From [Clostridium] celerecrescens 18A (lineage in GTDB: Bacteria; Bacillota; Clostridia; Lachnospirales; Lachnospiraceae): DNA of 64,000 nt. Where the stretch lies: positions 3,913,501-3,977,500 of the forward strand of contig NZ_PGET01000001.1 in the NCBI RefSeq assembly GCF_002797975.1, in the 5' to 3' direction. Positions 4,005 through 16,407 of this stretch are shown in pieces. The notes below the pieces were generated by a model. It saw nothing but the letters and a program-made list of their open reading frames with translations. It was not told the DNA's origin and searched no databases. Positions within the stretch are counted from its first letter, which is position 1. Every line of letters begins with the position of its first letter. Position numbers and translations under genes: made by a program.

Positions 4005-5517
4005 CTCCCGCACCTCCTGCAATTGCCTTCATAATATTATTCTGGTCCAGTTCGCCTTCTTTAAGCTCTCCCACCTTCTGCCCATCCCGGAGTACGGCCA
4101 TACGACTGCAGGTACGCAGCATTTCCTCTACCTCCGAAGAGATAAACATTACGGCCTTGTCCTCCTCTGAAAGCTTTACCACCAATTTCTGAATCTCTGT
4201 CTTGGTACCGACATCGATCCCTCTGGTGGGTTCATCTAGTATGAGAAAATCCGGGTCCGTAAGGAGCCATCTTCCTAAAATCACCTTCTGCTGGTTTCCT
4301 CCACTTAAGCTTTTTACAGGAGTCTCCCTGTTAGCTGTCTTTATCTGTAATAGTTCTATATACTTATCTGCAAGCTCCTCCTGCTCTTTTTGTCCAAAAG
4401 GCCGGAACATTCCCTTCTTTGCCTGAAGCGCCAAAATCAAATTGTCACGTACCGATAGATCCGCCACGATCCCTTCCTCCTTCCGGTTTTCCGGAAGATA
4501 CGCCATACCAGCCATCATGGCGTCAAGGGGAGCCGCCACCGAAACCGGCCGGCCGTTTACTTTTAACGCCCCGCTGTCCGGCTTATCCGCTCCATAAAGG
4601 CTCCTGGCAAGCTCCGAGCGTCCGGATCCTAAAAGCCCGGTAAGGCCAATTACCTCCCCTTTACGGACCTTTAAGTCGTAGGGCTTTATAGTTCCCTGCT
4701 TCCCGATCCCCTGTGCATCGATCACCAATTCCCCGGACCGTTCCTTTGCCTCTCCACTTTTTTTTATGGCAGCCAGATCGTCAAAATCTTTTCCCATCAT
4801 CTTGGCTACCAGCTGTACTCTGGGCAGTTTTTCCGTTTCATACTCTCCAACCAGAGCCCCATTTCTCAAAACGGTGATCTTATCGCAGACCTCATATACC
4901 TGTTCCAGGAAATGTGTGACAAAAATGATTCCTACCCCTTCTGATTTGAGGCGGTCCATCAGACGGAATAGCTTCTCCACCTCATTGTCATCTAAGGAAG
5001 AGGTGGGTTCGTCAAGAATCAAAACCTTTGCGGACATATCCACTGCCCTGGCAATTGCAAACATCTGCTGCAAAGCGATGGAATAGTTCTCCAGAGCCCT
5101 TGTCACATCTATATGGATATCCAGACTCTCCATTAAATCTTTCGCTTTCTTGTTCATGGTTTTCCAGTCGATGATGCCTGCCCGCTTCGGCTCCCTGCCA
5201 ATGAATAAATTCTCGGCTACGGATAAATTGGGGCAGAGATTGACCTCCTGGTAGACCGTGCTGATCCCATGAGCCTGGGCCTCCTGGGGAGAATGATTGA
5301 TCATATTCCCTTTAAACCCGTCAATGGTGATTTCTCCTGATTCAAACTCCTCCACACCTGTCAGAACTTTAATAAGGGTGGATTTTCCGGCTCCGTTTTC
5401 CCCCATCAGCGCATGGATCTCTCCCCTTCTCAACGTGAAGTCTACATGATCAAGGGCCTGCACACCTGGAAATGTTTTTGATATACTTCGCATGGCTAAT
5501 ACGATTTCATTGGGCAT
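3997..5517 (-). CDS. ytfR: Sugar ABC transporter ATP-binding protein, YtfR type (two ATPase domains)
   Basis: This 506-residue protein has tandem ABC domains, as in RbsA, MglA and YtfR. The first carries a complete Walker A (GENGAGKSTL), a signature region (NYSIALQQMFAIARA) and Walker B (VLILDEPTSSL). The second has a Walker A-like GLLGSGRSEL, the signature LSGGNQQKVILGRW and Walker B FLILDEPTRGID. The ATG at 5517 is preceded by GGAGGAAAGGAAGGG; 14 further in-frame codons upstream have no ribosome site. It powers import through the two downstream permeases. A terminator-like hairpin separates it from the binding-protein gene, which probably lowers its expression relative to that gene. Confidence 0.93.
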   Translation of the reverse strand: MPNEIVLAMRSISKTFPGVQALDHVDFTLRRGEIHALMGENGAGKSTLIKVLTGVEEFESGEITIDGFKGNMINHSPQEAQAHGISTVYQEVNLCPNLSVAENLFIGREPKRAGIIDWKTMNKKAKDLMESLDIHIDVTRALENYSIALQQMFAIARAVDMSAKVLILDEPTSSLDDNEVEKLFRLMDRLKSEGVGIIFVTHFLEQVYEVCDKITVLRNGALVGEYETEKLPRVQLVAKMMGKDFDDLAAIKKSGEAKERSGELVIDAQGIGKQGTIKPYDLKVRKGEVIGLTGLLGSGRSELARSLYGADKPDSGALKVNGRPVSVAAPLDAMMAGMAYLPENRKEEGIVADLSVRDNLILALQAKKGMFRPFGQKEQEELADKYIELLQIKTANRETPVKSLSGGNQQKVILGRWLLTDPDFLILDEPTRGIDVGTKTEIQKLVVKLSEEDKAVMFISSEVEEMLRTCSRMAVLRDGQKVGELKEGELDQNNIMKAIAGGAGDE

Positions 5518-5570
5518 AGAATCCCTTCCTTTCCTCCCCCGTCCTGCTGAAACCGGCAAATTCAGGGATC

Positions 5571-5624
5571 AAAAAAGGTGCAGAGCGGAGGACTTTAAAC
5601 CTCCGTCCTCCATTCCCCTGCACC
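5571..5624 (-). terminator. Intercistronic hairpin (partial terminator) between ytfQ and ytfR
   Basis: Outer arms GGTGCAG (5577-5583) / CTGCACC (5618-5624) enclose a second pair GGAGGAC (5587-5593) / GTCCTCC (5605-5611). On the minus strand the structure is followed by CTTTTTTG. Such hairpins behind binding-protein genes typically protect the upstream mRNA and attenuate read-through; that role is inferred here. Confidence 0.65.
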
Positions 5625-5670
5625 TGTTTATCCAGATTCACTTCTGCTTACGGCTCTAAAGCCCTGTGGA

Positions 5671-6765
5671 TCAATAGGCTCTCTTTGGTTTTTCCTGAGC
5701 CGCCGTATCAGCCGGATATACTCCTTCCTGTACATAGGCGATCTTATCTACGCTTTCACCCTTTTCCAGCTTCTGAATGATTTCAGCCACGCGGGGGCCA
5801 TGAAGCGGGTTACATTCTACGGAAACGTTCATATCACCGGCAATCATGGAATCAAATGCAGCCGCAACCGCGTCAAAGGAAATGATGATGATATCGCCCT
5901 TGGGCCCGCAGGTCTTTCCTGCCGCCTTAATAGCGTCAATGGCTCCAAAGGCCATGTTGTCATTTTCTGCAATCACAACGTCAATATCTTGATAGGTCTT
6001 TAAGAAGGATTCCATTACTTCCTGTCCCTTGGCCTGAGTAAATTCTCCTGTCTGCCGCTCCAGCATCTTCCACTTTGGATAATCTTTCATCTTCTCTTCC
6101 ACGCCGTCGGTACGTCCGATCTGAGCAGAAGAACCAATGGTTCCCTGTAGAGTTACGATGTTGATGTCATCATCTGAACGGTTGTTTTTCTTTAAGTAAT
6201 CACCAAGCCATGCTACTGCATCATAACCTTCCTGAAGGAAATTGGAACCGACCCATGCAGTATAGAGGGAATCGTCGGAAACATCGATCATACGGTCAAC
6301 GATGATGACCGGAATCCCCGCATCCTTTGCTTCCTGTAAAACCGTATCCCAGCCCGTTTCCGTCACCGGTGCAATCACAATATAGTCCACATCCTGCTGG
6401 ATAAAGTTACGGACAGCCTTTAGCTGGTTTTCCTGCTTCTGCTGTGCATCATCGAATATCAACTTGTACCCGTTCGCTTCCGTAAACGTGGATTTCATGG
6501 ATTCCGTGTTAGCTGTTCTCCAGTCAGATTCCGCTCCTACCTGGGAAAAACCTACCACAAGCAAATCTTTTTTTTCTTCTGTCTTGGGTGCCTCTGTCTT
6601 GGCTGCCTCTGTCTTGGCTGCCTCAGTCTTAGCCGCCTCTGTTTTTGTTTCCCCTCCTGCCGGCGCCGCGGTGGTCGCTGCAGTCTGAGAACCGCTGCAT
6701 CCGGATAAAACCATAGCTGCAGTCATGGCAGCCGCCGTCATCATGCCCAGTAATCCTTTCTTCAT
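5671..6765 (-). CDS. ytfQ: Galactofuranose/galactose-type ABC substrate-binding lipoprotein, YtfQ-like
   Basis: This 364-residue lipoprotein starts MKKGLLGMMTAA and has a hydrophobic signal with lipobox VLSGC, so it should be lipid-anchored outside the membrane. A low-complexity linker (residues about 30-65) built of repeated AAKTE units joins the anchor to a periplasmic-binding-protein domain of the Peripla_BP_4 type. VGFSQVGAESDWRTANTESM and DAQQKQENQLKAV closely resemble the same stretches of E. coli YtfQ, the galactofuranose-binding protein. The start at 6765 follows GGAGGG; an in-frame codon at 6780 is less likely. It has its own promoter upstream (6819-6847). Sugar specificity is inferred from similarity. 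Confidence 0.88.
   Translation of the reverse strand: MKKGLLGMMTAAAMTAAMVLSGCSGSQTAATTAAPAGGETKTEAAKTEAAKTEAAKTEAPKTEEKKDLLVVGFSQVGAESDWRTANTESMKSTFTEANGYKLIFDDAQQKQENQLKAVRNFIQQDVDYIVIAPVTETGWDTVLQEAKDAGIPVIIVDRMIDVSDDSLYTAWVGSNFLQEGYDAVAWLGDYLKKNNRSDDDINIVTLQGTIGSSAQIGRTDGVEEKMKDYPKWKMLERQTGEFTQAKGQEVMESFLKTYQDIDVVIAENDNMAFGAIDAIKAAGKTCGPKGDIIIISFDAVAAAFDSMIAGDMNVSVECNPLHGPRVAEIIQKLEKGESVDKIAYVQEGVYPADTAAQEKPKRAY
6581..6640. repeat. Four 15-bp tandem repeats inside ytfQ coding the lipoprotein linker
   Basis: Units at 6581, 6596, 6611 and 6626 are each close to GTCTTGGCTGCCTCT on the plus strand. They encode the repeated five-residue AAKTE linker unit. A direct repeat of whole codons can change copy number without breaking the frame. 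Confidence 0.85.
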
Positions 6766-6818
6766 ATCCGTTCCCTCCAAAATGATAGATGTGTTTACTT
6801 TTCTTAGTAACTACCAGT

Positions 6819-6938
6819 ATCATAGCGGTTACCGGCTTTCTTCTCAATGCAATATCTTTTGTAAACGGTTGAGATTCTTACGCCTTTGCCGGTCATTCCA
6901 AAACAAGGTTGGATTTTTTCAGAAAAAGGTTGATTTTT
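6819..6938 (-). promoter_or_regulatory. ytfQ promoter with candidate YesN-type operator repeats
   Basis: On the minus strand there is a -35 TTGAGA (6847-6842), a 17-bp spacer and a -10 TATGAT (6824-6819), upstream of ytfQ. Further upstream, the plus-strand sequence AAGGTTGGATTTTT (6905-6918) recurs as AAGGTTGATTTTT (6926-6938), exactly 21 bp apart, with a looser copy ACGGTTGAGATT near 6865. Direct repeats two helical turns apart suit an AraC-type dimer such as the response regulator encoded in this operon. The distal copy overlaps the stop codon of the kinase gene. Confidence 0.5.
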
Positions 6939-8376
6939 ATCTGTTCCCCTTTAAAGCAGCCGGGATCCTGACGGTAACAGAGGTTCCCACCCCATACTCG
7001 CTTTCGATGGAAACCCCATAGGTTTCACCAAAATTAAGCCGGATCCTCTCTGCCACATTGGCAATTCCAAATCCTTCCCGCAACCCTAAGTCTTCCCCGC
7101 CGTTTCGCACTAGTCTCTGCATTTTTTCAAGTTCTTCCGGCTTCATTCCGATGCCGTTATCCTCCACCTTTAGCAGAATGTCCTCTTCCTCCTGCCAGCC
7201 GCTGATCTTTAGAAAGCCCTTTTTCCTGCAATTCTTAATCCCATGGTAAAGGGCATTCTCCACAATCGGCTGCAGAGTCAGTTTCAACGTAGAGAAGTCC
7301 ATGATCTGCTCCTTAAAATCGATCTCATAATCCATAATGTCCTCATAGCGGAAATGCTGGATCTGAAGGTAGCTCTTTACATGTTCCGCCTCCCCCCTGA
7401 TGGTGATAAAATCCTTTCCATTGTTAAGCCCCATCCGCAGAAAGGAAGAAAGGGCCGTAATCATGTCCACCACATCCTGATGACGTTTCCCCTCTGCCAG
7501 CCAGACGATAGTATCCAGGGTATTATAAAGAAAATGAGGATTGATCTGAGCCTGCAAAAGCTTTAATTCGGTTTTTCTCTTGAGCTCCTGTTCTTCCCTA
7601 ATATGTTCAATCAGCTCCCCGATCCGGATCACCATGTGATCATACTGGTCGCTTAGCATCTGGATCTCACGTATATTACTTTTGGGCGCATTGACCTTTA
7701 AGCTGCCGTTTGCAAGCACCATGGTATATTGACACAGTTCCTCAATGGGTTTTGTAATCTTCTTTCCAAAGGAAGAAAAAGAAACGATTAAAAACACGAT
7801 GATGTAAGCGGAAACCACGATACATGAGGCAATGACCCTCTTTGTCTGAGAGTCCAGCTTTAAACGGGTGGATTCTAAGGTCTTTGTTTCGTTGTAAATA
7901 TAATCGGACATGGTTTCTTGAATCAGTTCAGTGATTATGTAAATATCCTTATCCAGGCGCTCCATATTCCGGTCATAATCACCGATAATATTGCTGGTAC
8001 GGATGTCTTCAATCCTCTTTTCCAGAATTCCGATCAGAATGATGATCCCATCTAACCCCTTTTTGCTGTTTTCCTGAGGAGTGGAATCCTTTAACTGTTC
8101 AAACAATCTCCGGGAATTTTCCAGCTCTTCATAGGGATTTAAAGAATCAAAGGTGTCCGCGCCTATGACAATTCGGTACATCTTATAATCGATGTTGGAT
8201 TTAAAGTCAAAATTAAACTCCGTAGCCATAGTTAAGTTCCGGATGCTTTGCCGATACTGTTCATTCTGCCACGCCATCATATACAGCAATATCCCAATCA
8301 TAATAATGACCGGGATAAATACGATTGCCTGCATAGATTGTAATTTAGCTTTGATTGAATCACGTTTTCGTATCAT
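6937..8376 (-). CDS. Sensor histidine kinase, YesM-like
   Basis: This 479-residue membrane kinase has a hydrophobic helix near residues 17-36 and a second near 180-200 that flank an extracytoplasmic sensor region. A HAMP linker (KITKPIEELCQY) follows, then a His_kinase domain with NPHFLYNTLDTIVWLAEG holding the phospho-accepting histidine, and a HATPase_c domain (VENALYHGIKN; EDNGIGMKPEEL). The ATG at 8376 has an AGGAGG site and overlaps the regulator gene by 17 bp. YesM/YesN pairs next to sugar importers usually sense the transported sugar, directly or through the binding protein; that is inference here. Confidence 0.9.
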   Translation of the reverse strand: MIRKRDSIKAKLQSMQAIVFIPVIIMIGILLYMMAWQNEQYRQSIRNLTMATEFNFDFKSNIDYKMYRIVIGADTFDSLNPYEELENSRRLFEQLKDSTPQENSKKGLDGIIILIGILEKRIEDIRTSNIIGDYDRNMERLDKDIYIITELIQETMSDYIYNETKTLESTRLKLDSQTKRVIASCIVVSAYIIVFLIVSFSSFGKKITKPIEELCQYTMVLANGSLKVNAPKSNIREIQMLSDQYDHMVIRIGELIEHIREEQELKRKTELKLLQAQINPHFLYNTLDTIVWLAEGKRHQDVVDMITALSSFLRMGLNNGKDFITIRGEAEHVKSYLQIQHFRYEDIMDYEIDFKEQIMDFSTLKLTLQPIVENALYHGIKNCRKKGFLKISGWQEEEDILLKVEDNGIGMKPEELEKMQRLVRNGGEDLGLREGFGIANVAERIRLNFGETYGVSIESEYGVGTSVTVRIPAALKGNR

Positions 8377-9988
8377 TTCTGCCTCCTGACCGGAATGCTT
8401 TCGGCGTAATTCCATGAGTCTTTTTAAATATGTAGCTGAAATAGTGAGGATCTTTATACCCCACCTGATACCCGATTTCCGAGGCCCGAAGGTCTGTCTT
8501 TAAAAGCAGTTCCTTAGCCGCTTCCATACGGACCTTTGTTAAATATTCCACAAATGTAATACCCATTTCCTGACTGAATATGGTGCTGAAGTAATTAGGG
8601 CTTATATTCACGCTGGAGGCTACCACATTTAAAGAAATGTCCTCATCCTTATAGTGGCCTTCAATGTAATCCTTGGATCGATCAAGAACCAGGCGGTACT
8701 TTTTCTGAGAACAGGTGGTACGGAGGGTGATGGCCTTTTTAAGGATCTCCCTGGCGTACTTTACTGCCCCTTCCTCAGATCCCACACAAGGCTTTAAGGT
8801 CTTTCCATCTCCAAATTCCTTTAAAACCTGCTCCGGCTCAAAACCAAGCTGGGTGACAAAACCAATGACAGCAAGATAAACATCCATCAGCAAATACTGC
8901 CGGAAGATCAGGGACTTAAAATTACTGCCGCAAGCCTCTAAATATTCTTCCAGAAAATACTTTACCTCAGATATCGAACCATTTTTAAGGAAATTAGGAA
9001 CAATATCCCGGCTAAGTTTGGTTATGTCCATACCTTCCAGGCTGATGGTTCCTGAATCATCATGAAGCCGGACGGCTGCCTCTGCCGTAAGAAGCTGGTT
9101 GTATTCCAGCATGTAGCGGCAGGCGTAGGCTCTACTGGCCGCCTTAAAACAGGTTCTCAGTTCACTGAGCCTGTATACCGGAACGCCAATTCCCCCGAAA
9201 TATTCCATGCCTGGGCTGGACTCCACAAGTCGTACCAAAAGCTCCTGGCAGGCAGTGGTCTTTCTATCTAAGTCTTCCCAATCGTTTCCCATGACCAGAA
9301 ATGCATACCCTTCTGTCAGTCGGTTAAATACGATGACTTCTGCCCTGTTCTCAAATCGGTCCTTGATCATCTCATCAAACATAACAACCTGATCCGTAAA
9401 CTGCTCCTGACTGCCGGAGACCCTTGCCTGAAATAAAATCAGATTATACACCGGTGCGCTAAGGGACAGACTGTGTTCCCGGCCCTTTAAAAGGATCTCC
9501 TGAAGGCTTAAGATTCCTGATACAATGGTATCAAACAGCCGGTCCCGCTCCATCCGCTTTCTTTCCTCCTGCTGCTTTAGAAACTCCAATTTATAGCCCC
9601 TCTCACTTTTTTCCTGGATAATTGCTTCGCTCATACGCTCCAGAGCCTCTAACAGCTGGCTGCTGCTTACAGGCTTAAGAAGGTAATCCGCTGCGCCAAT
9701 CCTTATGGCCCGCTTTGCGTATTCAAAGTCATCATATCCGCTGAAAAACATGATGCGAAGGTCCGGAAGTTCTCTCTTTACCATCTCAGCCAGTTCAAGC
9801 CCATCCATAAAGGGCATTCGGATATCAGTAAGCAGAATATCAGGCTTTGCCTTTAGAATCAGAGGATATGCCAGCTCCCCATCCGGTGCTTCCCCTGCAA
9901 ACTCAAATCCGTATTTTTCCCACGGAATACCATTTTTAATTCCCTCACGGACTATTTTTTCATCCTCAGCAAGAAAAATCTTAACCAT
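8360..9988 (-). CDS. AraC-family response regulator, YesN-like
   Basis: This is a 542-residue two-component regulator. The N-terminal receiver has the acidic pair AEDE, the phospho-acceptor in LLTDIRMPFMDG and a conserved lysine (LLKPVSSSQL). A long middle region follows (residues about 150-430), with no family I can name beyond YesN-type linkers. The C-terminal AraC helix-turn-helix pair contains INPNYFSTIFSQEMG-like helices (VASSVNISPNYFSTIFSQ) and SEIGYQVGYKDPHYFS. The start MVKIFLAEDEK at 9988 is preferred over an in-frame upstream codon at 10018. It heads the ytf-type operon and probably activates it; the repeats upstream of ytfQ are plausible targets. Confidence 0.9.
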   Translation of the reverse strand: MVKIFLAEDEKIVREGIKNGIPWEKYGFEFAGEAPDGELAYPLILKAKPDILLTDIRMPFMDGLELAEMVKRELPDLRIMFFSGYDDFEYAKRAIRIGAADYLLKPVSSSQLLEALERMSEAIIQEKSERGYKLEFLKQQEERKRMERDRLFDTIVSGILSLQEILLKGREHSLSLSAPVYNLILFQARVSGSQEQFTDQVVMFDEMIKDRFENRAEVIVFNRLTEGYAFLVMGNDWEDLDRKTTACQELLVRLVESSPGMEYFGGIGVPVYRLSELRTCFKAASRAYACRYMLEYNQLLTAEAAVRLHDDSGTISLEGMDITKLSRDIVPNFLKNGSISEVKYFLEEYLEACGSNFKSLIFRQYLLMDVYLAVIGFVTQLGFEPEQVLKEFGDGKTLKPCVGSEEGAVKYAREILKKAITLRTTCSQKKYRLVLDRSKDYIEGHYKDEDISLNVVASSVNISPNYFSTIFSQEMGITFVEYLTKVRMEAAKELLLKTDLRASEIGYQVGYKDPHYFSYIFKKTHGITPKAFRSGGRNDTKT

Positions 9989-10470: not shown

Positions 10471-11016
10471 TTAATAGTTCTCCGCGTGGATCTCGAAGTA
10501 GCTCTGCGGATGGTTGCAGGTCGGGCATACATCTGGGGCCTTGGCTCCAACCAAGATATGACCGCAGTTGCGGCACTCCCACACCTTAACTTCGCTCTTG
10601 GCAAAGACCTCCGCTATCTCCACATTGTGCAGCAGAGCGCGGTAGCGTTCTTCATGGTGTTTCTCCACCGCAGCTACGAGACGGAAACGCGCCGCAAGAT
10701 TTGTAAATCCTTCTTCCTCGGCAGTCTTGGCGAATCCGTTGTACATATCCGTCCACTCGTAGTTTTCACCCTCGGCAGCAGAAAGCAGATTTTCTTCAGT
10801 ATCGCCGATGCCTTCGAGTTCTTTGAACCAAAGCTTTGCGTGCTCCTTTTCGTTGTCTGCTGTTTTTAGGAACAGCGCGGCGATCTGCTCAAAGCCCTGC
10901 TTCTTAGCGACAGAGGCAAAGTAGGTATATTTGTTTCTCGCCTGAGACTCACCGGCAAACGCCTCCATCAGGTTTTTCTCGGTTTGTGTTCCTGCATACT
11001 TGTTGGTCTTGTTCAT
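10471..11016 (-). CDS. rbr: Rubrerythrin
   Basis: This 181-residue non-haem iron protein reduces hydrogen peroxide in anaerobes. The N-terminal ferritin-like four-helix domain (about 1-140) carries the di-iron ligand motifs ESQARNKY and [11 protein letters not shown] later helix has [11 protein letters not shown]. The C-terminal rubredoxin-like domain has two CxxC knuckles (WECRNCGHI and DVCPTCNHP) that bind one iron. It has the usual length and domain order. Upstream lies an unusual promoter: a perfect TATAAT -10 preceded by four 11-bp-spaced boxes (see 11061-11115), overlapped by an AT-rich sequence resembling a PerR box. Confidence 0.96.
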
Positions 11017-11060: not shown

Positions 11061-11115
11061 ATTATATATCACTTTCCGTTCCAACTTCGTTCTTATTGCG
11101 TTCCTCTATCGTTCC
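11061..11115 (-). promoter_or_regulatory. Promoter of rubrerythrin with four 11-bp-phased GGAACG boxes
   Basis: On the plus strand CGTTCC/CGTTCT hexamers begin at 11077, 11088, 11099 and 11110, exactly 11 bp apart. Read toward the gene these are GGAACG, GGAACG, AGAACG, GGAACG. Ten bases after the last box comes TATAAT (11066-11061). There is no TTGACA-like -35 at the correct distance, as expected of an activator-dependent promoter. The same architecture recurs at 12392-12446. Confidence 0.7.
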
Positions 11116-11160
11116 AATTATTTTTTACAATTTTTCGACCCAGTGGCCCAATTCCGTATT

Positions 11161-11664
11161 TTACGTTCTTACGGTAATCTCTTTTATCATGCGCATCAGT
11201 TCTAAAGCACTTCGGAATGCTACATAATTTCTTGATGTCAGCCTGCCGGCCACTATTCCCTGCATACTGGCATTCTGGCGATGTTCTATTTTGACAATCA
11301 ATGTTTCTTTCGCATGAATCGCACGGGTACTTAAGGTCATAATATCCTGCAGCTGAATTTTTGCCTTTACTGGTATTTTGTTTTTTCCCTTAGTTCTGCG
11401 TGCATATTCTTCGGACATTTTTTTATTAAGAAACCTTGGATTAGTGGAAGGCTGGGGAGTTCCGACCCAGTCGCATATTTCATCCAGTTTAAGCATTAAA
11501 TCGCCCATATTGGAAAACTGCACAGGTCCGTCTATGTAGCAGTTAAGAATTTCACCATATAAATTTCCTTCTTTTTTTCCATGAAAACAAATGAGCATCG
11601 TACTGACCCGGTCTGTTACAGTCATGCTGCGGCAGATGTTCTGCATTTCTTCGCTTTTTATCAT
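11161..11664 (-). CDS. Conserved-looking hypothetical protein, 167 residues
   Basis: I do not recognise a family. The protein begins MIKSEEMQNICRSM, has no signal peptide or membrane helix, and is mixed alpha/beta in pattern. A central basic stretch (EEYARRTKGKNKIPVKAKIQ, residues about 86-105) is followed by LIVKIEHRQNASMQGIVAGR and an Arg-rich C-terminus, which might suggest nucleic-acid or phospholigand contact (speculative). It lies between rubrerythrin and the Spo0A-C-like gene on the same strand. Codon usage is normal and the frame is uninterrupted, so it is probably real. Confidence 0.6.
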   Translation of the reverse strand: MIKSEEMQNICRSMTVTDRVSTMLICFHGKKEGNLYGEILNCYIDGPVQFSNMGDLMLKLDEICDWVGTPQPSTNPRFLNKKMSEEYARRTKGKNKIPVKAKIQLQDIMTLSTRAIHAKETLIVKIEHRQNASMQGIVAGRLTSRNYVAFRSALELMRMIKEITVRT

Positions 11665-11930
11665 AGATTTATTATCCCCTTTTCTATCGTGCTTTGTAGG
11701 TCTTCTTTATAGAAAGGGAAAGCAAAGGATATGCACACTTTCCCTTTCCAGCAGATGAAAGTTGCAGTTTTATATTGTTCTAGAAGTATATTGGCATAAA
11801 TATTTCAACATGCAATAATGTATGGTTCCTGTATTTGTCATTTTCAAAATACTCACAAAGTAGTAAGCATGATCCGCCATAAAGTAATTTCTTTACTTAT
11901 AACTGGAAACATCTACTACACACCCTTATC
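11665..11930. other. Intergenic stretch without a recognisable gene
   Basis: It contains one inverted repeat, GAAAGGGAAA (11712-11721) / TTTCCCTTTC (11739-11748), without a clear T-run on either side. The rest is AT-rich and I see no coding signal in it. Confidence 0.4.
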
Positions 11931-12074
11931 CTAGACCACCGTAAGACTAGAGCCCGGCACATTGTTTTCTACCCCAGTATAGAGTGCCATATTTTCACAA
12001 TGCTCAATGAGATCTAAAGATAACTTGCAGTAAGTTTGCCACGGATCCTGTTTCGTATTGATAACTAGTAGCAT
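11931..12074 (-). CDS. Possible small protein, 47 residues, downstream of the Spo0A-C-like gene
   Basis: An ATG at 12074 follows TAGGTGGTTTTA, a plausible ribosome site 38 bp downstream of the Spo0A-C-like gene on the same strand. The frame runs 47 codons to a TAG at 11931. The peptide starts MLLVINTKQDPWQTYCKLSL and continues through DLIEHCENMALYTGVE. It has two cysteines, an aromatic-rich middle and no signal or membrane helix. I recognise no family. The balanced composition favours a real short gene, but a remnant of a longer gene is equally possible since two stop codons lie directly upstream in frame. Confidence 0.35.
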   Translation of the reverse strand: MLLVINTKQDPWQTYCKLSLDLIEHCENMALYTGVENNVPGSSLTVV

Positions 12075-12112
12075 TAAAACCACCTACTACAGGTAAGGCT
12101 GCACCAATCTGC

Positions 12113-12337
12113 TCAGGTTTTTTGCTTTGCTTCGTCCGCCAGAAGGCTTAGAACTTCTTCAGCTGTGGGGATGCGGCCATCTGGAAAGAGCTCCCGCCAT
12201 TTCGCTTGCACTGCTGGATCTGGATTGCTCATCCCCGTCTGGATCGCATGGTCGATTTCCATGCGTACCTCTTCGATGTTAGTTCCGTTTCTGGCCGCTA
12301 CCTGCTTTAAAGTTTTAGTCACCTTTTGTTTTCTCAT
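12113..12337 (-). CDS. Small Spo0A C-terminal-domain-like protein
   Basis: This 74-residue protein starts MRKQKVTKTLKQVAARNG and contains GTNIEEVRMEIDHAIQTGMSNPD followed by a tail TAEEVLSLLADEAK. Proteins of this size and pattern in clostridia are usually annotated as Spo0A C-terminal-domain-like; the helical pattern fits, but DNA binding is untested. The ATG at 12337 follows AGGAGG. An upstream in-frame ATG at 12379 has no ribosome site and would lie almost at the predicted transcription start. The promoter just upstream carries the same four-box, 11-bp array seen at rubrerythrin. Confidence 0.65.
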   Translation of the reverse strand: MRKQKVTKTLKQVAARNGTNIEEVRMEIDHAIQTGMSNPDPAVQAKWRELFPDGRIPTAEEVLSLLADEAKQKT

Positions 12338-12391
12338 GTTGTTATCCTCCTGGCTATCTGTTTTGATACTCTTTCCCATGATTGTGAATTA

Positions 12392-12446
12392 AGTATATAA
12401 TAAACAGTGTTCCAGATCCGTTCCACAGGCGTTCCTAAACCGTTCT
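12392..12446 (-). promoter_or_regulatory. Promoter of the Spo0A-C-like gene with four 11-bp-phased boxes
   Basis: Plus-strand hexamers TGTTCC, CGTTCC, CGTTCC and CGTTCT begin at 12408, 12419, 12430 and 12441, exactly 11 bp apart. In gene direction the boxes are AGAACG, GGAACG, GGAACG, GGAACA, followed by 10 bases and TATACT (12397-12392). Box sequence, period and distance to the -10 all equal those at 11061-11115. A predicted start near 12385 gives a leader of about 48 nt before the AGGAGG site. Confidence 0.7.
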
Positions 12447-12550
12447 TGTTTTGATTAATTAAAAAGAAAAAAGGCTCATCTGCAGTGTGCAAACGGCCCG
12501 CTTAGTTTAACTGTGTATCATTTGAAATATTCAAAAGCTTATGAAATGAA

Positions 12551-12586
12551 GCAAAAAAGGAGAGGATGCGCACGCAACCTCCCTCT
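12551..12586 (-). terminator. Terminator of the GGDEF gene
   Basis: On the minus strand GGGAGGTTGCG and CGCATCCTCTCC form an imperfect stem around a two-base loop, followed by TTTTTT. It lies about 60 bp past the stop of the GGDEF gene. Confidence 0.65.
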
Positions 12587-12644
12587 ATAATCTGATAGAC
12601 TTAAGAATTCTACCACTCTTAGAAAATAATTTATATGGTACATA

Positions 12645-14585
12645 TTATTCACCGCGCAAGGAGTTTAATTCAGGGAATGTAAATTCTCCCCAACTATAAT
12701 TCATCATATAAACTCCTTTAAATAGATGGGCATACTCTGCTTTTCCGGATAAATAATTATACAAGTCACAGCTCACCAGTCCGGTATTGAGTCTTCTTAA
12801 CCCTTTTTTCGACTCTACCAATTCTTCCAGATGATATTCCTTTAAGGTATTTCGAAGCAACATAAATACTTTTCTGCAACGCGCAAAGGTAGTCTGGTTG
12901 GCTTCTTCGCCTTCCCACAAACATGCAATGATTTCACCGGGAGATACGAAACCTCTGCGCCGGTCCACCAATAAGGCCAGCAACTCCTTTGCTTTTGGGT
13001 TTGGTATTAGAATCGCCTCCCCATTGTGGAATAGGTCAAAATAGCCAAATGTACGGATATAGAGTCCAGTATCAGACTGGCTTGGTTTTTCTATAGGTGT
13101 AACCATTGAACTTGCAGCTATGTTCTGCATTTGTTCATGGTAGATCACATATCTATTACGTCCGTTTAGTTTTGCGTGGTAAAGCGCGATGTCCGCCTTT
13201 TCGTAGAGCGTTTGAAAATTATCTCCATGTTTTGGGAATAATGCAATTCCAGCGCTCATGGAAACTTTAATTCCATGCTTTAATTCCCGGTAAATCGCTG
13301 CAATAATGATGCGAAGTCGCTCTTTGACGGATTCAAGATCTGAACTGTCATTGACATAAATTGCAAATTCATCTCCACCAATACGTGCAACCATATCTTC
13401 CGGCTCTATAACAAGTTTCAACGTTTTTGCAATATCTTTTAATACCTTGTCCCCGTAAGCATGACCCAGCACGTCATTGATCTGACCAAAACCATCGACA
13501 TCCAACATGATCAGAGCACGACAAATCCCATCCATCGTTATTGCACATTTTTCTTGAATCTTATCCATAAGTGCGGCCCGGTTGTAAATCTCCGTCACCG
13601 GATCGAATTGAGCTCGCTCCACTAGCTTCAGCGCCGATTCGTGTTCCTGGGTCACATCACGACAGGACAGCCATATGTTGACACACGCGTTATAAGGGTC
13701 ACGGAGCAGTTGGTACAGAATACGTACCCATGTTTGTTTTCCGTTGAAGTAGAGGGGGAATTCCAAAACATCATGGCTCACGCCATGAGAAAATGCGTCC
13801 CAAAGGACAGTTCTAGAAAAACTATTCAGAAAGGATTCCCGGTAGGAGGGAAGAATATCCTGCCCGAACCGTTGGATCGCTTCCGTATAAGAGGCCGTAA
13901 GTGCCTCTCGGTAGCAATCTGGAACTACTCCGTCACTTGATTCAAAAGAATCCTTAGTTAGATTATATTCAATATTGAGAACGACCTTGCGGGTCCCTAC
14001 CTCCAGCTTTTGTTTTCCCACCCGCATAAAATCACGAAAGCGTTGAGCTGCCAATACCTTATCACGTATTTCCGTGATATCCTTACAAAAAATGATAGCG
14101 TAAAGCGGAACCCGATTTTGATCAAAGGCAATTACGTATGTGCAGTGATACCATTGCCAGCTCTTGTTCTCTCTTTTAATTTTAATATTAATCTCACCTT
14201 TTGGGATCCCATTGCACATCTTATCTAAGAAGAGTCCCATTTCTTCTATATTTTCTTCTGCCACCAGTTTGGAATCCCGAAGTTGCCTCATTGTAAGCTT
14301 ACCAGACACACTAGAAAAGAATTCTCGTGCCACAGCCCCTATAGGTTCAAAATGATCGCTACAAAAGTCGTACTTTGCAATCACAGTACTCACATTATTG
14401 AGAACTCCCTGCAATAGCAGAGACGATTCTTTCAGAACAGAGATAAAATCGTCTACAGTCAAATCGCTCATTGGTGGGACATCATAATTCAGCAGCTTCA
14501 TCAGCTGAATGATTTCAAACTGAATTTCTGAGACATCTTTTGGTGAAAGATGCTCTCTGGTATTCCAAATATGTTTATCTTCCAT
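12645..14585 (-). CDS. PAS-PAS-GGDEF protein with a C-terminal SARP-like winged helix
   Basis: This 646-residue protein has no membrane helix. Two PAS-like regions (about 55-175 and 200-312, the second ending LSCRDVTQEHES) precede a complete GGDEF domain (about 320-485) with LDVDGFGQINDVLGHAYGD and the active-site motif GGDEF at 403-407. It should therefore make cyclic di-GMP. The inhibitory RxxD site is not evident: the arginine position is Glu. Unusually, residues about 507-605 form an OmpR/SARP-type winged helix (FGYFDLFHNGEAILIP, KAKELLALLVDRR, FVSPGEIIACLW), followed by a short BTAD-like tail (CDLYNYL, FKGVYMMNYSWGEF). The ATG at 14585 follows AAAGGTGG. It is probably a transcription factor as well as, or instead of, a cyclase. 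Confidence 0.88.
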   Translation of the reverse strand: MEDKHIWNTREHLSPKDVSEIQFEIIQLMKLLNYDVPPMSDLTVDDFISVLKESSLLLQGVLNNVSTVIAKYDFCSDHFEPIGAVAREFFSSVSGKLTMRQLRDSKLVAEENIEEMGLFLDKMCNGIPKGEINIKIKRENKSWQWYHCTYVIAFDQNRVPLYAIIFCKDITEIRDKVLAAQRFRDFMRVGKQKLEVGTRKVVLNIEYNLTKDSFESSDGVVPDCYREALTASYTEAIQRFGQDILPSYRESFLNSFSRTVLWDAFSHGVSHDVLEFPLYFNGKQTWVRILYQLLRDPYNACVNIWLSCRDVTQEHESALKLVERAQFDPVTEIYNRAALMDKIQEKCAITMDGICRALIMLDVDGFGQINDVLGHAYGDKVLKDIAKTLKLVIEPEDMVARIGGDEFAIYVNDSSDLESVKERLRIIIAAIYRELKHGIKVSMSAGIALFPKHGDNFQTLYEKADIALYHAKLNGRNRYVIYHEQMQNIAASSMVTPIEKPSQSDTGLYIRTFGYFDLFHNGEAILIPNPKAKELLALLVDRRRGFVSPGEIIACLWEGEEANQTTFARCRKVFMLLRNTLKEYHLEELVESKKGLRRLNTGLVSCDLYNYLSGKAEYAHLFKGVYMMNYSWGEFTFPELNSLRGE

Positions 14586-14611
14586 ACAGCCACCTTTCTC
14601 TACGACGCCAG

Positions 14612-14656
14612 CGTTCCAAAAAATTGATTCCAGCGTTCTAATTGTTAACTATTATA
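14612..14656 (-). promoter_or_regulatory. Leader of the GGDEF gene with two GGAACG boxes 22 bp apart
   Basis: Plus-strand CGTTCC (14612-14617) and CGTTCT (14634-14639) are exactly 22 bp (two periods of 11) apart, in the same orientation to the gene as the arrays at 11077 and 12408. The position between them does not match. A TATAAT (14656-14651 on the minus strand) lies upstream, so the boxes would fall just after the transcription start, suggesting negative autoregulation rather than activation. Confidence 0.45.
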
Positions 14657-14820: not shown

Positions 14821-14878
14821 ACAACCAGGACAGCACTTAATGCTTCTGCATAACCTGGCATATGGTCCTGGAGGTTGT
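14821..14878 (+). ncRNA. Structured 5' leader of the arylsulfotransferase-like gene
   Basis: ACAACCAGGAC (14821-14831) can pair with GTCCT-GGA-GGTTGT (14865-14878), an 11-bp stem with one 3-nt bulge. It encloses about 33 nt that contain smaller possible hairpins. The stem ends about 6 nt before the GAGAGGAGG ribosome site of the gene at 14902. It matches no riboswitch class I can name. Other bases in 14657-14820 show no gene. Confidence 0.4.
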
Positions 14879-14901
14879 ATCCGAGAGGAGGACACACAGC
14901 A

Positions 14902-16407
14902 ATGGAGGAACGGTATTTCGAAGCAGGACAAAAGATTAAAAAAGCAACTTCAAACCGTCAGGTGTGGAACTTTCATTCCGCCCCCTGCCTTCACCCAATG
15001 AAGGTCAAGATTAATGTAGACAGACCCGGAACCGCTCCTGGTTATCTGTTTGTAGCACCATATACGGGGTTTGGAGAAACTTTGGTCGGACAAACGGGGT
15101 CCCTAATTATGGATCAGACCGGCGATCCGGTCTGGTTCCGGCCCCTTAAAAGCCGGTATCTGCAGAACACTGACTTTAAGGTACAAAGATATAAAGGAAA
15201 ACCAGTTCTCACGATGTGGCAGGGCACTATTTCCGGTACCCAGACCGAAAATCCAAACCTGCCTGACGGAGATCCGGAACCGGGCGCTTATTTTCAGATA
15301 TTAGACCAGAATTATAAGGTGATTAAAAAACTTAAGGCAAAGAAAGGGTTTACCTCAGATGTTCACGAATTTACAATCACGAAACGCAATACTGCATTAT
15401 TTACCGCAGTAAAGCAGGTACCTGCAGATTTAACCAGATATGGCGGTCCGGCAGACGGTTATATAGACAATTACTCCATTCAGGAGGTTGATCCCGAAAC
15501 CGGAAAGCTTCTGTTCTTCTGGGATGTTCTGGCACACGTCGATCCGGCTGATTCCATGCTGCCGGCTTCCTCTGCATTGGAATCCAATAACATTTGGGAT
15601 TGCTATCACGTAAATTCCGCTGAGGAGGGATCGAACGGTACACTATTGATCAGCATGCGAAACATGTGGGCCATTTACCAGATCAATAAGCAAACAGGAG
15701 AAATTCTATGGCAGATGGGAGGAAAAAGGAGCGATTTTACCTTCGGTCCAAACGCAACATTTTCATGGCAGCATGACGCCCGCTACCGGACCAACGACAG
15801 AATCAGTTTGTTCGACGATGCCTGCTGCGCTTCATCTAGTTCCCCTCCAGATAATGTGGCGCGGGGCCTGATTCTTCATCTGGATTTTCATGACATGACG
15901 GCAACCGTATCAAGAACCTATTACCATGATCCGCTTTTGTTCGTCGCAAGCCAGGGAAATGTACAGCAATTGCCTGACTGCAATCAGCTGGTAGGGTGGG
16001 GACAGGAATCCTATCTCTCAGAGTTTAAATATGCAGGCAACACGGTTGCTGATCCATCGGTGAATTTTATTTACGATATGGAGTATCCCGGAGATAACAT
16101 CTCTTACCGTGCATTCAAATATTGTTGGAAGGGGACACCTGCCTGCCCGCCTGATATAGCCGTTCACTTATCCCCTCCCAATGCAGTTGTGTATGCCTCT
16201 TGGAATGGTTCCACAGAAACAGACGCCTGGCGGGTGCTCTCCGGCCCTGACCCGGATTCACTGGACATTGATATTTGCAGCACCCCCCGTACAGGATTCG
16301 AAACAAAAATAATCGTACCGTCTTTGGAACCATATTTTCAGGTGAAGGCATTGGATGCCAACGGCAAAATAATAGGAAAGTCAGAGATTGTCTGCCTGGA
16401 TTATTAG
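14902..16407 (+). CDS. Arylsulfotransferase (ASST)-like beta-propeller protein
   Basis: This 501-residue protein resembles the Arylsulfotran_2/ASST family, which in characterised members transfers sulfate between phenolic compounds through a histidine. Features include SDVHEFTITKRNTALFTAVK, IDNYSIQEVDPETGKLLFFW, the pair WDCYHVNS ... LLISMRNMWAIYQI, GEILWQMGGK and FSWQHDARY, with conserved His and Trp in the propeller blades. The ATG at 14902 follows GAGAGGAGG; an upstream in-frame start at 14875 has no such site. There is no signal peptide, whereas E. coli-type ASST is periplasmic, so a cytoplasmic or non-classically exported enzyme is implied. It is monocistronic and convergent with the symporter gene. 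Substrate unknown. Confidence 0.8.
   Translation: MEERYFEAGQKIKKATSNRQVWNFHSAPCLHPMKVKINVDRPGTAPGYLFVAPYTGFGETLVGQTGSLIMDQTGDPVWFRPLKSRYLQNTDFKVQRYKGKPVLTMWQGTISGTQTENPNLPDGDPEPGAYFQILDQNYKVIKKLKAKKGFTSDVHEFTITKRNTALFTAVKQVPADLTRYGGPADGYIDNYSIQEVDPETGKLLFFWDVLAHVDPADSMLPASSALESNNIWDCYHVNSAEEGSNGTLLISMRNMWAIYQINKQTGEILWQMGGKRSDFTFGPNATFSWQHDARYRTNDRISLFDDACCASSSSPPDNVARGLILHLDFHDMTATVSRTYYHDPLLFVASQGNVQQLPDCNQLVGWGQESYLSEFKYAGNTVADPSVNFIYDMEYPGDNISYRAFKYCWKGTPACPPDIAVHLSPPNAVVYASWNGSTETDAWRVLSGPDPDSLDIDICSTPRTGFETKIIVPSLEPYFQVKALDANGKIIGKSEIVCLDY

What the first reader, a model, noticed from the sequence alone, without database searches (positions are those of the whole stretch)
11061..14656. 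Four-box, 11-bp-phased promoter arrays next to a GGDEF protein with a SARP-like DNA-binding domain: a candidate new regulon
Seen: GGAACG-type hexamers occur four times at exact 11-bp steps upstream of rubrerythrin (plus-strand starts 11077, 11088, 11099, 11110) and upstream of the Spo0A-C-like gene (12408, 12419, 12430, 12441). In both, exactly 10 bases separate the last box from a good -10 (TATAAT; TATACT) and no -35 is present. Two more boxes, 22 bp apart (14612, 14634), precede the GGDEF gene. Known: SARP regulators bind direct repeats spaced 11 or 22 bp a few bases from the -10. Inference: the GGDEF protein, which ends in a SARP-like winged helix, binds these arrays, links PAS sensing and possibly cyclic di-GMP to peroxide defence and a Spo0A-like protein, and controls itself.
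Basis: partly seen in the sequence, partly recalled or inferred. Interest (0 to 1): 0.88.

Follow-up and report, generated by a model that had tools for sequence, protein, structure and literature searches.

The report
Sensor-activator and its four-box promoter arrays
A sensory protein with a DNA-binding tail very probably switches on nearby genes through a four-fold repeated DNA tag; relatives of the protein go together with the same tag at the fatty-acid-synthesis operon of many gut Clostridia, so this looks like a widespread regulatory system that we did not find described.

Summary
The arrays are real: with up to one mismatch the 3-box pattern occurs in this 5.27-Mb genome only at these two promoters. 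The C-terminal winged helix of the GGDEF protein has 720 relatives at E<=1e-3. DNA around 80 of them held 15 arrays of the same design: GGAAC boxes at 11-bp steps, 9-10 nt, a TATAAT-like -10. A profile of these arrays tracks the regulator in whole genomes. Class sample: 7 of 391 genomes have an array, the same 7 have a close winged helix. Family sample of 397: 11 of 12 array genomes have it. Of 59 unique arrays, 50 precede the acpP-fabK fatty-acid operon; the window's two and seven others precede different genes. Clostridium porci keeps regulator, array, Spo0A_C-like gene and the two boxes before the regulator gene. Those boxes lie downstream of the -10, suggesting self-repression. The rubrerythrin array has no counterpart there. 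It works like a SARP activator but no BTA domain was found. Binding, activation and any role of c-di-GMP are untested.

The parts
12645..14585 (-). Gene of the 646-aa regulator: sensor region with a weak PAS match, GGDEF domain (residues 325-478, RIGGDEF intact, no Arg at the place of the RxxD inhibitory site), C-terminal OmpR-type winged helix
   Evidence: the place of the inhibitory site is recalled
12648..13079 (-). Codons of the C-terminal winged-helix domain (conserved K.KELLALL and NYSWGE stretches)
12408..12446 (-). Four-box array (AGAACG, GGAACG, GGAACG, GGAACA at 11-bp steps) before the Spo0A_C-like gene
12392..12397 (-). -10 TATACT, 10 bases after the last box; no convincing -35
12113..12337 (-). 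Spo0A_C-like small protein (74 aa from the ATG at 12337; the mechanical ORF starts at 12379, 88 aa); C. porci homologue 49% identical, in the operon behind an array
11077..11115 (-). Four-box array (GGAACG, GGAACG, AGAACG, GGAACG at 11-bp steps) before rubrerythrin
11061..11066 (-). -10 TATAAT, 10 bases after the last box; no convincing -35
10471..11016 (-). Rubrerythrin gene (181 aa), predicted target
14634..14639 (-). First self box AGAACG, 11 bases downstream of the regulator gene's own -10
14612..14617 (-). Second self box GGAACG, 22 bp from the first; a like pair at a like place in C. porci
14651..14656 (-). -10 TATAAT of the regulator gene, upstream of the two self boxes

Best explanation
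The GGDEF protein is a one-component transcriptional activator. Its C-terminal OmpR/SARP-type winged helix binds GGAACG boxes side by side, one per helical turn, in a four-box array that takes the place of a -35 element and ends 9-10 nt before a strong -10, so that the bound protein brings in RNA polymerase. In this genome it drives the Spo0A_C-like and rubrerythrin promoters, and it probably limits its own synthesis through two boxes just downstream of its own -10. It belongs to a family of which another large branch does the same at the acpP-fabK fatty-acid operon of Clostridia. Shown here: the arrays, their design, their co-occurrence with and closeness to the regulator, and conservation of array and self pair in one other species. 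Inferred: binding, activation, self-repression. Unknown: what the sensor part senses and whether the cyclase affects DNA binding.
For: Co-occurrence (array at E<=1e-3): class sample 7 of 7 genomes with a close winged helix (>=173 bits) against 0 of 384 without; family sample 11 of 21 (>=183 bits) against 1 of 376; 31 of 45 further genomes that have the winged helix but no counted array in the stretch first fetched. More distant winged helices do not bring arrays: 119 further family genomes match A1 at lower scores and none of them is among the 12 array genomes. Design: 59 unique arrays, -10 TATAAT or one or two bases off, best -35 match 4 of 6 (the scan itself asked for a -10). Place: of 26 loci with both, 4 have the array divergent from the regulator gene, 4 directly behind it (93-449 nt; one is L091's weak one), the others upstream on the same strand. 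Target swap: regulator and array stay together while the target changes, fab against Spo0A_C-like, rubrerythrin, ThrE and others. C. porci: regulator 59% identical, Spo0A_C-like 49%, array between them, like self pair. One family member at E<=1e-10 in this genome. The domain profile matches ArlR and AfsR winged helices; SARP promoters have repeats 11 or 22 bp apart, the last 8 bp from the -10 (PMC10936776, passages).
Against: No binding or expression data. Of the 21 family genomes with a close winged helix, 5 have no array match even at E 0.1 (G055, G065, G290, G354, G233), G256 has only a partial one at 0.095, and G154, G249, G361, G013 only weak ones (0.002-0.035); several are fragmented. 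G400 has an array-like match (E 7e-4) without a winged-helix match. The plain 3-box pattern with one mismatch is uninformative elsewhere: 12 of 200 family genomes match it, and about 26 match its reversed control (my count). The rubrerythrin array has no conserved counterpart; in the 24 other genus genomes no best match reaches past residue 516 of the regulator (list cut) and none has such an array. The window domain's own match to Trans_reg_C is weak (E 0.055). No structure model could be made.
Confidence: 0.83

Rival explanations
1. The arrays are bound by another OmpR/PhoB-type regulator that uses 11-bp direct repeats, and the GGDEF protein is only a neighbour.
For: OmpR-family regulators also read direct repeats about one helical turn apart (recalled). 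In fab loci the regulator lies in the same gene cluster, so linkage alone could give co-occurrence.
Against: Arrays are missing where the close winged helix is missing: 0 of 384 and 1 of 376 genomes. In the window, C. porci and other non-fab loci, regulator and array stay together although the genes behind the array differ.
Confidence: 0.07
2. The protein does bind the arrays, but as a repressor: the array lies where sigma region 4 would sit and keeps polymerase off.
For: The array covers the -35 region, and the self boxes suggest that the protein can repress as well.
Against: The 59 array promoters have good -10 hexamers and no convincing -35, as activator-dependent promoters do. SARP repeats at nearly the same distance from the -10 serve activation (PMC10936776, passages).
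Confidence: 0.12
3. The arrays are chance or repeat-derived DNA without function.
For: Short boxes; only two arrays in the genome and none in the rest of the genus.
Against: No match of the reversed control in this genome at one mismatch; the same design, with different spacer bases, before genes in other lineages; co-occurrence with the regulator.
Confidence: 0.01

Closest known systems
SARP activators (AfsR, EmbR; ActII-4 and PimR recalled or seen in a listing) of Actinobacteria
   Same: OmpR-type winged helix; direct repeats 11 or 22 bp apart; last repeat close to 8 bp from the -10; poor -35
   Different: No BTA domain found; the sensor part (PAS, GGDEF) is N-terminal; hosts mostly Clostridia; array before fatty-acid, rubrerythrin and Spo0A_C-like genes; up to four boxes instead of two or three
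OmpR/PhoB-family response regulators (ArlR and others)
   Same: Winged helix of the Trans_reg_C kind; direct-repeat boxes (recalled for this family)
   Different: No receiver domain; one-component protein
FapR and FabT, known regulators of fatty-acid synthesis in Bacillota
   Same: For the fab-linked branch: the same operon to control
   Different: They are repressors with other folds and palindromic sites (recalled; FabT and FapR papers seen only in listings); here direct-repeat arrays and PAS-wHTH proteins
Diguanylate cyclases with PAS sensors
   Same: Intact RIGGDEF motif
   Different: Fused to a DNA-binding domain; 14 of the 18 search hits P0008-P0025 lack the GG(D/E)EF motif

Membership tests
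SARP | OmpR-type winged-helix DNA-binding domain | tested here: met
   Profile A1 matches AfsR (E 0.0075) and the relative P0028 the NCBIfam AfsR model (E 0.0046, far below its cut-off); Trans_reg_C in 13 of 16 members at E<=1, best 9.5e-7. Weak for the window's own domain (E 0.055).
SARP | All-helical BTA domain directly after the winged helix | tested here: not met
   No BTAD among the Pfam matches of 16 members at E<=1 or of the whole protein at E<=0.01; only some tens of residues follow the winged helix. A remnant below detection is not excluded.
SARP | Direct repeats 11 or 22 bp apart | tested here: met
   11 bp in both arrays, 22 bp in the self pair
SARP | Last repeat about 8 bp from the -10 | tested here: met
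   9-10 nt after the 6-bp box, that is 7-8 nt if the unit is 8 bp
SARP | Activates transcription by contacts with sigma region 4 and RNA polymerase | not testable with these tools
   No bench data
OmpR/PhoB response regulators | N-terminal receiver domain | tested here: not met
   PAS_9 (below cut-off) and GGDEF, no Response_reg
Diguanylate cyclase | GG(D/E)EF motif | tested here: met
   RIGGDEF; Pfam GGDEF 131 bits
Diguanylate cyclase | Makes cyclic di-GMP | not testable with these tools
   No bench data
FapR or FabT (fab-linked branch) | FapR or MarR-type DNA-binding protein | tested here: not met
   Pfam domains recorded for the 120 listed relatives are PAS kinds, GGDEF kinds and PF00486; some have none recorded

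The most novel reading that the evidence does not exclude
A family of PAS-wHTH one-component activators is the main switch of fatty-acid synthesis in many Clostridia, in the role that FapR and FabT have elsewhere. A side branch with a live diguanylate cyclase in the same chain has been re-aimed at other genes, so that a cyclic di-GMP enzyme is itself a sequence-specific promoter activator and represses its own gene.
Probability: 0.5. Interest if true: 0.9.

Novelty: new variant of a known kind. Interest (0 to 1): 0.82.

Why it matters
It pairs an unnamed regulator family with its DNA code across Clostridia, predicts what controls the fatty-acid operon in many uncultured gut bacteria, and shows a regulator whose targets changed while its code stayed. 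It also offers a direct test of whether a diguanylate cyclase can act as its own transcription factor.

Tried and rejected
Three-box scans with one mismatch: 12 of 200 family genomes matched (reversed control about 26, my count) and 4 of 25 genus genomes matched (reversed control 12, my count). Outside this genome the printed matches looked coding by eye or lay in other repeats, such as an AGAATGGTGTG-like repeat before a terminator in G221 and G222. Viral contigs: no match. Plasmids, near mode: no match. A de novo search for 3-box repeats in the 80 loci stood out at period 12 (45 places), which I trace at least in part to a simple tandem repeat in L091. In my four-box scan, control periods 8-14 other than 11 reached at most 24.0 (two places at period 12) and reversed sequence 22.2; the 15 arrays scored 24.0 to 28.0, the lowest two 24.0 and 24.1, so the lowest end alone is not clear of the controls. 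Of the 8 exact two-box matches, 6 belong to the 15 arrays; L094 (no -10) and L127 were dropped. L091 has a weak stretch without a -10 (E 0.05) and was not counted as an array. L179 (G400) was left out of the tally. The tally of 59 includes 17 training arrays, and L180, L183, L184, whose profile E-values are above 1e-3.

Literature: seven answered searches on SARP, GGDEF and fatty-acid regulators and one on PhoP repeats listed no description of this family or of its fab link; I read passages of PMC10936776 and nothing else beyond listings. The library holds no subscription papers and no preprints.

The class and family samples share genomes. Training arrays come back in G000 (both samples) and G607 (class); without these the counts are 5 of 5 and 10 of 20. 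The 7 class genomes are of 5 genera.
Full report
OBSERVATION. In the whole genome the 3-box pattern with up to one mismatch occurs only in these two arrays (4 overlapping matches; control 0 in this genome); at three mismatches it is at noise (23 against 25 for the reversed control). In the 24 other genomes of the genus there is no such array: the matches are one in G202, which looks coding, and an unrelated repeat in G221 and G222. No best match there reaches past residue 516 of the regulator (its list is cut), and the Spo0A_C-like protein has relatives of at most 41% identity in 4 of the 24. The unit is thus peculiar to this species within the held genomes of its genus, and conservation had to be sought further away.

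THE PROTEIN. Pfam sees GGDEF and a weak PAS match but no DNA-binding domain. Residues 488-646 alone find 720 proteins at E<=1e-3; most of the 120 listed carry PAS or PAS and GGDEF domains, some PF00486, some nothing recorded. Sixteen aligned domains share the K.KEL.AL and NYSWGE stretches; 13 of 16 match Trans_reg_C at E<=1. The profile matches solved winged helices of ArlR (E 0.004) and of AfsR, a SARP (E 0.0075). In the alignment with AfsR the conserved Trp, the acidic loop after it and the basic recognition helix line up with AfsR W74, E76-E77 and R87-K95 (my numbering). The paper names W74, R87, T88, S91, R92, R94 and K95 as DNA contacts and mentions E76 and E77 in the passage on the sigma contact, which was cut in my view; E77A alone had no obvious effect on transcription (PMC10936776, passages). 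No BTA domain was found.

THE LINK. The search for related loci kept 80 of 467 relatives in genome contigs. In these 1.09 Mb the exact two-box pattern occurs 8 times and its reverse 0 times. A four-box plus -10 scan found 15 arrays at a score of 24.0 or more; controls reached 24.0 at one other period. I aligned these 15 with the two window arrays, built a sequence-only profile R1 and searched whole genomes. Family sample, 397 genomes: R1 at E<=1e-3 in 12 (67 at E<=0.1, mostly partial); A1 at E<=1e-10 in 140, of which 21 score 183 bits or more, the next 155; array and close winged helix together in 11, array without it in 1 (Fisher p 5e-15). Class sample, 391 genomes: R1 at E<=1e-3 in 7; A1 at E<=1e-40 in 8, of which 7 score 173 bits or more and one 140; the 7 are the same genomes as the array genomes (p 4e-15). 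The score limits were set after seeing the gaps. Further genomes: of the 65 loci without a counted array I gave 45 to the search (44 and L091); 31 of the 45 genomes have an array at E<=1e-3 elsewhere. The Fisher value for this used 31 of 44 and compares different samples, so I do not lean on it.

TARGETS. Of 30 array loci fetched, 5 hold training arrays; the other 25 lead into acpP and/or fabK, by short sequence motifs. Over unique arrays were tallied: 50 before acpP/fabK and 9 before other genes, the window's two among them. Fab arrays mostly have 9 nt before the -10 (41 of 50), the others mostly 10 (7 of 9). Box 3 is the least kept (GGAAC in 13 of 50 and 3 of 9). No array has a convincing -35 (best match 4 of 6 bases, in 5 arrays). 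Of 99 loci with a located winged-helix gene, 20 show the fab genes together and all 20 have the array: 4 divergent from the regulator gene, 16 on the same strand 5.4-12 kb upstream of it; 6 others have an array or, in L091, a weak stretch; 73 have none in the stretch held. Some of the 99 loci are two stretches of one genome. A tree of 113 winged helices puts the 35 fab-linked rows in one supported group of 72 (99) and the window in another group of 28 (95) with three further array-bearing non-fab rows, L088, L089 and L090; two more, L101 and L115, lie outside both on long branches. The tree has few columns and 56 of 101 forks are open.

C. PORCI. Its regulator is 59% identical over 599 residues. 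Behind it, 93 nt after the gene, lies an array leading into a 177-aa protein and a Spo0A_C-like protein 49% identical to the window's. Before the regulator gene a TATAAT is followed, 13 bases on, by two GGAACGC boxes 22 bp apart, as in the window (11 bases); the second box overlaps the mechanical ORF start, but the likely start codon (MNRPII) lies further down. Of 76 upstream regions looked at, only these two have a 22-bp pair; the regions were set by mechanical ORF starts. The rubrerythrin of C. porci, 41% identical, lies nearby without an array, and its genome has no second array at E<=0.1. L115 has single boxes on both sides of a -10 before its regulator gene.

MECHANISM. SARP promoters have direct repeats 11 or 22 bp apart, the last 8 bp from the -10, and AfsR binds the repeats and sigma region 4 together (PMC10936776, passages). 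The geometry here is nearly the same, so activation at promoters without a -35 is the likeliest reading. The self boxes, in the early transcribed region, would instead block transcription. The GGDEF motif is intact in the window protein (also P0001) and in P0002-P0007; 14 of the next 18 search hits lack it. Whether c-di-GMP matters is open.

LIMITS. Everything is comparative. Samples overlap in part and genomes within them are related. Fragmented genomes may hide arrays. Fab genes were recognised by short motifs.

Noticed in passing
L169-L178, L248-L277, L278-L280, L283: GGAAC arrays head the acpP-fabK fatty-acid operon in many Clostridia that carry a PAS-wHTH protein; no paper describing this was found in the searches made.
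   Followed up: yes
L281 and L282: In family f66 the array, directly behind a relative with an open frame of about 1110 aa, leads into a coiled-coil-like protein and a gene that looks like a signal peptidase (by eye, not searched).
   Followed up: partly
L089 about 4821-8423: Butyricicoccus pullicaecorum: an array precedes the regulator's own reading frames, which appear as two (298 and 758 aa); possible positive self-control.
   Followed up: no
window 11161-11664: 167-aa protein between the two arrays with no Pfam or NCBIfam match at the limits used; not similar to the 177-aa protein of the C. porci operon.
   Followed up: partly
window 14875-16407: Arylsulfotransferase-like gene divergent from the regulator gene.
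   Followed up: no
G221 and G222 (L047-L050): AGAATGGTGTG-like 11-bp repeat units before a terminator-like sequence in two genomes of the genus; not a promoter array.
   Followed up: no
L091 about 581: 12-bp simple tandem repeat (ACCATTACCGTT).
   Followed up: no
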